Assembly: GCA_947170435.1 (NCBI GenBank)
Contig: CAMVTO010000003.1
Location: forward strand, 1 to 64,000
Source: an uncultured Clostridia bacterium
Lineage (GTDB): Bacteria; Bacillota; Clostridia; Oscillospirales; Oscillospiraceae
Length of the DNA stretch: 64,000 nt
Reading direction: 5' to 3'
The notes under the pieces were generated by a model. That model was not told the DNA's origin and did no database searches. It was given only the letters and a program-made list of their open reading frames with translations. Positions 29,254 to 29,505 of this stretch are shown in pieces (within the stretch, counting starts at the first letter, position 1; every line of letters begins with the position of its first letter). Position numbers and translations under genes: made by a program.

Positions 29254-29282
29254 GCCTCCATCCCCTTTTTGGAGACGGAGGC
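29254..29282 (-). terminator. Intrinsic terminator in liv leader (attenuator)
   Basis: minus strand GCCTCCGTCTCC-AAAAA-GGGGATGGAGGC then TTTTATTAT; 12 bp with two G-U pairs. Confidence 0.82.
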
Positions 29283-29321
29283 GAAAATCGCTTGTCGGAG
29301 GCTTACGATTCGATTCCGGCT

Positions 29322-29444
29322 TCAAAAAGGAATATGGGCGTTTACGCCTACTACCCCTACCGACAGAATCGTAATAAGAGAGGAAGCCCCGGCCGTGCGG
29401 CTGGAAGCGAGGGTGCGGATGTCGTTGGTGCGCAGCATCGTCAT
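29322..29444 (-). CDS. BCAA-type leader peptide MTMLRTNDIRTLASSRTAGASSLITILSVGVVGVNAHIPF
   Basis: 40 codons after AAAGGAG; LITILSVGVVGV control-codon-like stretch; terminator downstream and promoter upstream. Confidence 0.8.
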   Translation of the reverse strand: MTMLRTNDIRTLASSRTAGASSLITILSVGVVGVNAHIPF

Positions 29445-29476
29445 GATCCGAGACTCCTTTCGTGAGCGTTGTGGAT

Positions 29477-29505
29477 ATTTTGCCACGGCACGCGGCAAAT
29501 GTCAA
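29477..29505 (-). promoter_or_regulatory. Sigma70-type promoter for liv leader
   Basis: minus strand TTGACA-N17-CAAAAT. Confidence 0.7.

What the first reader, a model, noticed from the sequence alone, without database searches (positions are those of the whole stretch)
29254..29505. Leu/Ile/Val leader peptide and alternative hairpins upstream of the liv operon
Seen on the minus strand: TTGACA-N17-CAAAAT, AAAGGAG SD, and a 40-codon ORF MTMLRTNDIRTLASSRTAGASSLITILSVGVVGVNAHIPF. This is followed by GAATCGTAAGCCTCCGAC (29311-29294) and a 12-bp terminator GCCTCCGTCTCC-AAAAA-GGGGATGGAGGC-TTTTATT (29282-29254). The leader codons for ITI (TTACGATTC, 29374-29366) are perfectly complementary to GAATCGTAA (29311-29303). 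The adjacent GCCTCC can pair with GGAGGC of the terminator 3' arm. This gives a classical 1:2 / 2:4 / 3:4 layout. Inference: ribosome stalling at Ile/Leu/Val codons frees segment 2 to disrupt the terminator.
Basis: partly seen in the sequence, partly recalled or inferred. Interest (0 to 1): 0.82.

Follow-up and report, generated by a model that had tools for sequence, protein, structure and literature searches.

The report
Leader-peptide attenuator for amino-acid import operon
Just before a bacterial operon that imports leucine, isoleucine and valine, this rumen-type bacterium encodes a tiny peptide rich in those amino acids, whose translation very probably decides whether RNA polymerase stops or reads on; such switches are classic for genes that make amino acids, but I found no description of this family, which sits before import genes in several groups of gut bacteria.

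Summary
On the minus strand a promoter, a Shine-Dalgarno (SD) site, a 40-codon ORF (29444-29322) and an intrinsic terminator (29282-29254) precede livJHMGF. Nine leaders from one genus keep the ORF in frame.

Leader segments 1 and 2 have co-evolved (p about 1e-4; 0.001 without near-duplicates). All four Val codons are GTA, 5% of Val codons in nearby genes; across the nine leaders GTA is 29/35 against 1/235 in livJ.

One part of the reading is wrong. The 2:4 pairing exists only in this genome. The supported antiterminator is a classical 2:3: CGGA-n-AATCGT, just after the stop codon, pairs with the terminator's 5' arm (combined p about 3e-5).

The leader's own SD pairs with a segment inside its ORF, and this co-evolves too. 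A longer leader family lies before livJ in other Oscillospiraceae (17 of 18 hits of a peptide-only genome search); similar leaders occur in Synergistaceae. A Met-rich leader precedes metQ in the same window.

Best reading: ribosome-mediated transcription attenuation sensing charged Val/Ile/Leu tRNA; a new member of a known kind, unusual in controlling uptake rather than synthesis. Nothing here is experimental.

The parts
29477..29505 (-). sigma-70-type promoter TTGACA-17-CAAAAT with extended -10 TG
   Evidence: sequence, scan; conserved in the genus
29454..29460 (-). Shine-Dalgarno AAAGGAG of the leader ORF
   Evidence: sequence; conserved
29322..29444 (-). leader ORF, 40 codons plus stop, MTMLRTNDIRTLASSRTAGASSLITILSVGVVGVNAHIPF
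   Evidence: peptide profile finds it once in this genome; 25 peptide homologues
29448..29457 (-). SD-side strand of the SD:ORF helix, GGAGTCTCGG
   Evidence: co-evolution test
29383..29392 (-). ORF-internal anti-SD segment CCGGGGCTTC (codons 18-21)
   Evidence: co-evolution test
29343..29375 (-). control codons ATT ACG ATT CTG TCG GTA GGG GTA GTA GGC GTA (codons 24-34)
   Evidence: codon bias
29359..29374 (-). segment 1: TTACGATTC (29374-29366) and TCGGT (29363-29359)
   Evidence: co-evolution with segment 2
29303..29320 (-). segment 2: GCCGG(A) and GAATCGTAA, shared between 1:2 and 2:3
29273..29291 (-). segment 3: pairs with segment 2 in the antiterminator and overlaps the terminator 5' arm
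29254..29282 (-). intrinsic terminator stem-loop (3:4), 12 bp, about -22.7 kcal/mol
29247..29253 (-). T tract TTTTATT of the terminator
27928..29142 (-). livJ, substrate-binding protein
26831..27730 (-). livH, permease
25771..26829 (-). livM, permease
24890..25774 (-). livG, ATPase
24187..24897 (-). livF, ATPase
   Evidence: best models are Liv, though below the curated NCBIfam cut-offs, so the exact substrate is inferred

Best explanation
This is a ribosome-mediated transcription attenuator of the liv (branched-chain amino-acid ABC importer) operon. Transcription starts at the 29505-29477 promoter and a ribosome translates the 40-codon leader. If charged Val-, Ile- or Leu-tRNA is scarce, the ribosome stalls on the Ile/Leu codons or on the rare GTA Val codons (codons 24-34) and covers segment 1. 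Segment 2 then pairs with segment 3, the 2:3 antiterminator swallows the terminator's 5' arm, and RNA polymerase reads on into livJHMGF. If the amino acids are plentiful, the ribosome reaches the TGA, its front edge covers the CGGA of segment 2, and the 3:4 terminator forms. Without translation, 1:2 forms and termination follows. Once the first ribosome has passed, the leader's SD pairs with codons 18-21, which probably limits re-initiation. Shown by sequence and comparison: the elements, the conserved frame, 1:2 co-evolution, a 2:3 signal beyond chance, SD:ORF co-evolution, rare-codon bias, and association with livJ. Inferred: ribosome positions, the direction of regulation, which of the three amino acids dominates (Val suspected), and the role of the SD pairing.
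For: Nine in-frame leaders in the genus. Segment 1:segment 2 own partners -124.9 against -98.5 kcal/mol for swapped partners, p = 1e-4, or 0.0012 for seven diverged leaders. 2:3 antiterminator beyond shuffled middles, combined p = 3e-5 for seven diverged leaders. CGGA ends 10 nt after the start of the stop codon in 8 of 9, where a terminating ribosome covers it. Computed 2:3 probability in this genome: 0.95-0.98 with a ribosome stalled at any control codon, 0.00 at the stop codon, 0.00 without a ribosome. GTA 29/35 in leaders against 1/235 in livJ; 5.1% in nearby genes. SD:ORF co-evolution p = 0.005 in type I and 4e-5 in type II. A peptide-only search for the longer leader family hits 18 places, 17 of them directly before livJ homologues. 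A Met-rich leader with the same layout precedes metQ in the same window.
Against: No expression data. The no-ribosome state is not special: codon-shuffled ORFs often block 2:3 as well. Fold energies of 2:3 alone are ordinary, and a first partner-swap test for 2:3 was not significant. G001 does not form the predicted 2:3 in most stalled states, and G014 forms it without a ribosome. Three genomes of the genus with livJ lack the leader, so it is dispensable. Pooled codon statistics are inflated by relatedness.
Confidence: 0.87

Rival explanations
1. One reading: segment 2's GCCTCC pairs with the terminator's 3' arm (2:4) and so breaks the terminator, with no 2:3 antiterminator.
For: Eight complementary bases, AAGCCTCC, are present in this genome.
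Against: The eight relatives have only 3-5 matching bases there, while the 2:3 register is kept.
Confidence: 0.03
2. The ORF encodes a small functional protein (for example a membrane peptide), and the hairpins are an ordinary terminator plus chance pairing.
For: The peptide C-terminus is conserved, and the longer type II peptides have hydrophobic runs.
Against: Segments 1 and 2 co-evolve although segment 2 is non-coding; Val and Ile codons are rare synonyms; the residues and lengths vary widely; and no protein family matches convincingly.
Confidence: 0.04
3. A tRNA- or metabolite-binding RNA (T-box or riboswitch) controls the terminator, and the ORF is incidental.
For: T-boxes are a common BCAA control in Gram-positive bacteria (PMC6123439).
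Against: No Rfam family reaches threshold in the window or in 20 related loci except tRNAs; the ORF frame, SD and rare codons are conserved.
Confidence: 0.02
4. The leader acts mainly by translational control or coupling (SD gating or Rho), not by intrinsic termination.
For: The leader SD pairs with its own ORF, so initiation on the leader matters.
Against: A strong intrinsic terminator with a T tract follows each of the nine type I leaders, and livJ has its own SD about 100 nt beyond it.
Confidence: 0.04

Closest known systems
Rli60 / ilv-leu attenuator of Listeria monocytogenes (PMC5864092)
   Same: Short BCAA-rich leader ORF, mutually exclusive antiterminator and 3:4 terminator, ribosome-mediated.
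   Different: Controls BCAA synthesis in Listeria with a 13-aa leader; here a 40-aa leader before an importer, no sequence relation, and the leader SD pairs with its own ORF.
ilvD leucine-rich attenuator of Staphylococcus aureus (PMC5794164)
   Same: BCAA-rich leader peptide (26 aa) and a terminator before a BCAA operon in a Gram-positive bacterium.
   Different: Synthesis operon; its proposed antiterminator pairs with the terminator's U tract, not with the 5' arm.
E. coli trp, leu and ilv leader attenuators (own knowledge; summary in PMC6123439)
   Same: Classical 1:2, 2:3, 3:4 layout with segment 2 near the stop codon; rare control codons as in the Salmonella leu leader; the trp leader's SD is also reported to pair with downstream leader RNA (own knowledge).
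   Different: Synthesis operons of enterobacteria; no sequence relation; the target here is the liv importer.
T-box leaders of BCAA genes in Bacillota
   Same: Sense tRNA charging and end in a terminator/antiterminator choice.
   Different: No T-box found; here the sensor would be a translating ribosome.

Membership tests
Ribosome-mediated (leader-peptide) transcription attenuator | promoter, SD and short ORF upstream of the first structural gene | tested here: met
   conserved in nine leaders
Ribosome-mediated (leader-peptide) transcription attenuator | run of codons for the amino acid relevant to the operon | tested here: met
   I,T,I,L,S,V,G,V,V,G,V; rare GTA and ATT codons
Ribosome-mediated (leader-peptide) transcription attenuator | segment 1 (in the ORF) pairs with segment 2 | tested here: met
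   co-evolution, p = 1e-4
Ribosome-mediated (leader-peptide) transcription attenuator | segment 2 alternatively pairs with the terminator 5' arm (antiterminator) | tested here: met
   combined p = 3e-5 for seven diverged leaders; G001 an exception
Ribosome-mediated (leader-peptide) transcription attenuator | intrinsic terminator before the first gene | tested here: met
   29282-29254 and homologues
Ribosome-mediated (leader-peptide) transcription attenuator | expression responds to charging of the cognate tRNA | not testable with these tools
   needs reporters or term-seq
T-box or other Rfam riboregulator | match to a described RNA family | tested here: not met
   no match in the window, nor in a permissive search of the leader region; only tRNAs in 20 related loci
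liv (LIV-I) operon as target | livJHMGF gene order and protein families downstream | tested here: met
   best NCBIfam and Pfam models for all five genes, scores below the curated NCBIfam cut-offs

The most novel reading that the evidence does not exclude
Oscillospiraceae and Synergistaceae use a standing toolkit of leader-peptide attenuators for amino-acid import operons (liv, metQ, perhaps others), in which the leader's SD is sequestered by a segment of its own ORF so that essentially one ribosome per transcript makes the decision. This would be a distinct, uptake-controlling branch of ribosome-mediated attenuation, possibly passed between phyla with the liv operon.
Probability: 0.45. Interest if true: 0.68.

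Novelty: new member of a known kind. Interest (0 to 1): 0.56.

Why it matters
Leader-peptide attenuation is the textbook switch for amino-acid biosynthesis. Here it appears to govern import, in gut and rumen bacteria for which I found no such report; cultured Oscillibacter strains (O. valericigenes An890, Oscillibacter sp. PC13) carry the longer form. It makes a specific, cheap prediction: livJHMGF should respond to Val/Ile/Leu tRNA charging. With 9 type I and about 30 type II leaders it also gives a ready set for a new RNA family model, and the repeated SD:ORF pairing, seen independently in two leader types and in the metQ leader, suggests a general design feature that can be tested directly.

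Tried and rejected
Partner-swap test for 2:3 with overlapping 20-22 nt windows: not significant, replaced by an anchored shuffle test. Fold-energy z-scores of 2:3: uninformative. Claim that native ORFs specially block 2:3 without a ribosome: not supported against codon-shuffled ORFs. Single-sequence shuffle test of SD:ORF helices: 15 of 50 leaders at p <= 0.05, suggestive only, replaced by the partner-swap test. Rfam, NCBIfam and Pfam for the leaders: nothing convincing (best a TrbC hit below its cut-off). DNA-level search beyond the genus: only short matches inside unrelated genes (L006-L009). Type I peptide profile in other genera: no hit. Papers: no report found of a leader peptide for a liv operon, for metQ, or in Oscillospiraceae (the library lacks most subscription journals). 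AlphaFold model of MetQ: too poor to use (pLDDT 51).

Full report
The element. On the minus strand the sequence reads TTGACA (29505-29500), 17 nt, CAAAAT (29482-29477, preceded by TGG), SD AAAGGAG (29460-29454), ATG at 29444 and TGA at 29324-29322, then a terminator stem 29282-29254 with TTTTATT, and livJ starting at 29142. The downstream genes are livJ, livH, livM, livG and livF by their best NCBIfam and Pfam models, though below the curated NCBIfam cut-offs.

Conservation. A DNA search of 100 related genomes found the leader in four others of the same genus. Following livJ found three more plus L011, giving nine leaders. A peptide profile recovers all eight that are held in whole genomes and gives no second site in this genome. 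The peptides are 37-46 aa, end in PF, and keep their frame, while the spacer between stop codon and terminator varies freely from 39 to 47 nt. Three relatives (G007, G010, G013) have promoter and livJ but neither leader ORF nor terminator: loss of the whole module. Three others of the genus (G004, G011, G012) have the longer type II leader instead.

Pairing 1:2. I took a 16-nt segment 1 anchored in the control region and a 22-nt segment 2 fixed by the invariant CGGA. Duplex energies of own partners total -124.9 kcal/mol against a mean of -98.5 for swapped partners (p = 1e-4; 0.0012 after dropping near-duplicates). The changes are large: G014 uses TGATGCTG:CAGCATCA, G017 CGATCCTG:CAGGATCG, G001 TGC(C)GGCG:CGCCGCA with one bulge. 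This is the strongest evidence that the alternative hairpins are real.

Pairing 2:3. Folding the RNA from the stop codon to the end of the terminator's 5' arm gives the same two-part hairpin in the leaders: CGGA with TCCG of the 5' arm, and an inner ATCG-type helix with CGAT-type bases. The energies alone are ordinary. With CGGA and the arm fixed and the middle shuffled, native sequences form CGGA:TCCG far more often (0.97 against 0.42 in this genome, 0.80 against 0.01 in G002; combined p = 3e-5 for seven diverged leaders). G001 is an exception.

Ribosome states. With arm 4 not yet made, the probability of 2:3 in this genome is 0.95-0.98 when all RNA up to 13 nt beyond the start of the A-site codon is hidden, for any I/L/V codon from 24 onward. 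It is 0.00 with the ribosome at the stop codon and 0.00 with no ribosome. The stop-codon state follows from the geometry: CGGA ends 10 nt after the start of the stop codon in 8 of 9 leaders. The no-ribosome state is not special, because codon-shuffled ORFs often block 2:3 as well. G001 and G014 do not follow the full three-state pattern.

Codons. Valine is GTA in 29 of 35 leader codons and 1 of 235 livJ codons; Ile is ATT in 25 of 36 against 12 of 161. In 13 genes around the finding GTA is 5.1% of Val codons, so four of four is about 7e-6 by chance. Relatedness of the leaders inflates the pooled Fisher values, but type II leaders show the same bias (GTA 77/170 against 17/604).

SD pairing. The leader SD region pairs with codons 18-21 (GGAGTCTCGG:CCGGGGCTTC, two G-U pairs). 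Own partners beat swapped partners in type I (p = 0.005; 0.009 without near-duplicates) and separately in type II (p = 4e-5). The recurrent A-E/G-A-S motif of the peptides overlaps this segment and may be its coding image. I infer that it limits further initiation after the first ribosome.

Wider family. Oscillibacter, Dysosmobacter and relatives carry leaders of about 62-98 codons before livJ with a covarying internal hairpin (TGGACGCCAT..ATGGCGTCCA, GACACTG..CAGTGTC and others), in many a GATACAG-AAAGCGG terminator, and many Ile/Leu/Val codons. A profile of these peptides searched in 151 family genomes gave 18 sites in 17 genomes; 17 lie directly before livJ homologues and one before a lactate-permease-like gene. 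Part of the profile came from some of the same genomes, but the new ones behave alike. Synergistaceae have shorter leaders at the same place. No Rfam, NCBIfam or convincing Pfam family matches.

A second case in the window. Between livF and metQ lie a promoter (24170-24142), an SD, the ORF 24109-24023 MKNVAMMTMMEKMCMFMRIRFDMLSVRG and a terminator (23993-23965). It is conserved in several relatives and deleted in others, and its SD segment GGAGAGCAT is the exact complement of ATGCTCTCC in its own ORF. A Met-rich leader before a methionine-type importer gene, beside a Val/Ile/Leu-rich leader before a BCAA importer, is the pattern attenuation predicts.

Place among known systems. It works like the E. 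coli trp/leu/ilv leaders and the ilv-leu leaders of Listeria (PMC5864092) and Staphylococcus (PMC5794164), and meets every sequence criterion of a ribosome-mediated attenuator; the physiological response is untested. A review of BCAA control describes attenuators for synthesis genes, and the passages I read report none for importers (PMC6123439). I found no paper on a liv or metQ leader peptide, within the limits of the library. I file it as a new member of a known kind, with an unusual target and a recurrent SD-gating feature.

Noticed in passing
window 24170-23965 (-): A second leader: promoter, SD, Met-rich ORF MKNVAMMTMMEKMCMFMRIRFDMLSVRG (24109-24023; 9 Met of 28) and terminator before metQ, with the SD exactly complementary to ATGCTCTCC in its own ORF. 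It looks like a methionine leader-peptide attenuator; conserved in G003, G008, G009, G015, deleted in G001, G002, G005, G006, G014.
   Followed up: partly
window 23921-23073 (-): MetQ appears circularly permuted: after the signal peptide and lipobox, residues 27-164 match the C-terminal half of solved MetQ-family proteins (4ib2 109-250) and 184-281 the N-terminal half (10-106). The permuted order is kept throughout the genus, while G019, G020 and G021 have the usual order.
   Followed up: partly
L017, L022, L023, L030, L037, L043 and others, upstream of livJ: Long (about 62-98 codon) leader ORFs with a covarying internal hairpin (TGGACGCCAT..ATGGCGTCCA), Ile/Leu/Val-rich, then a terminator; a widespread type II liv leader of Oscillospiraceae.
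   Followed up: partly
L054-L056, L060, L066-L068, L077, L080, L085: Synergistaceae livJ loci (LivJ about 75% identical) have shorter hydrophobic leader ORFs, some sharing the [L/V]DAL..ASIF motif and hairpin with Oscillospiraceae; suggests transfer of the operon with its leader.
   Followed up: no
L162 (G048:C35): A type II-like leader (..SIIIILDAVLASIFALISLLSIRL..) followed by a terminator sits before a lactate-permease-like gene rather than livJ.
   Followed up: no
L012, L014, L114 (G010, G007, G013): Natural clean losses of the whole liv leader module (ORF plus terminator) while the promoter and livJ remain.
   Followed up: partly
L173, L174 (G012, G004), upstream of metQ: A different 22-aa ORF with a strong SD (MQILLKERMCPSCSRLRRNGRM / MLKLLKERMCPHGSCSRMSGRM) stands where the Met-rich leader would be.
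   Followed up: no
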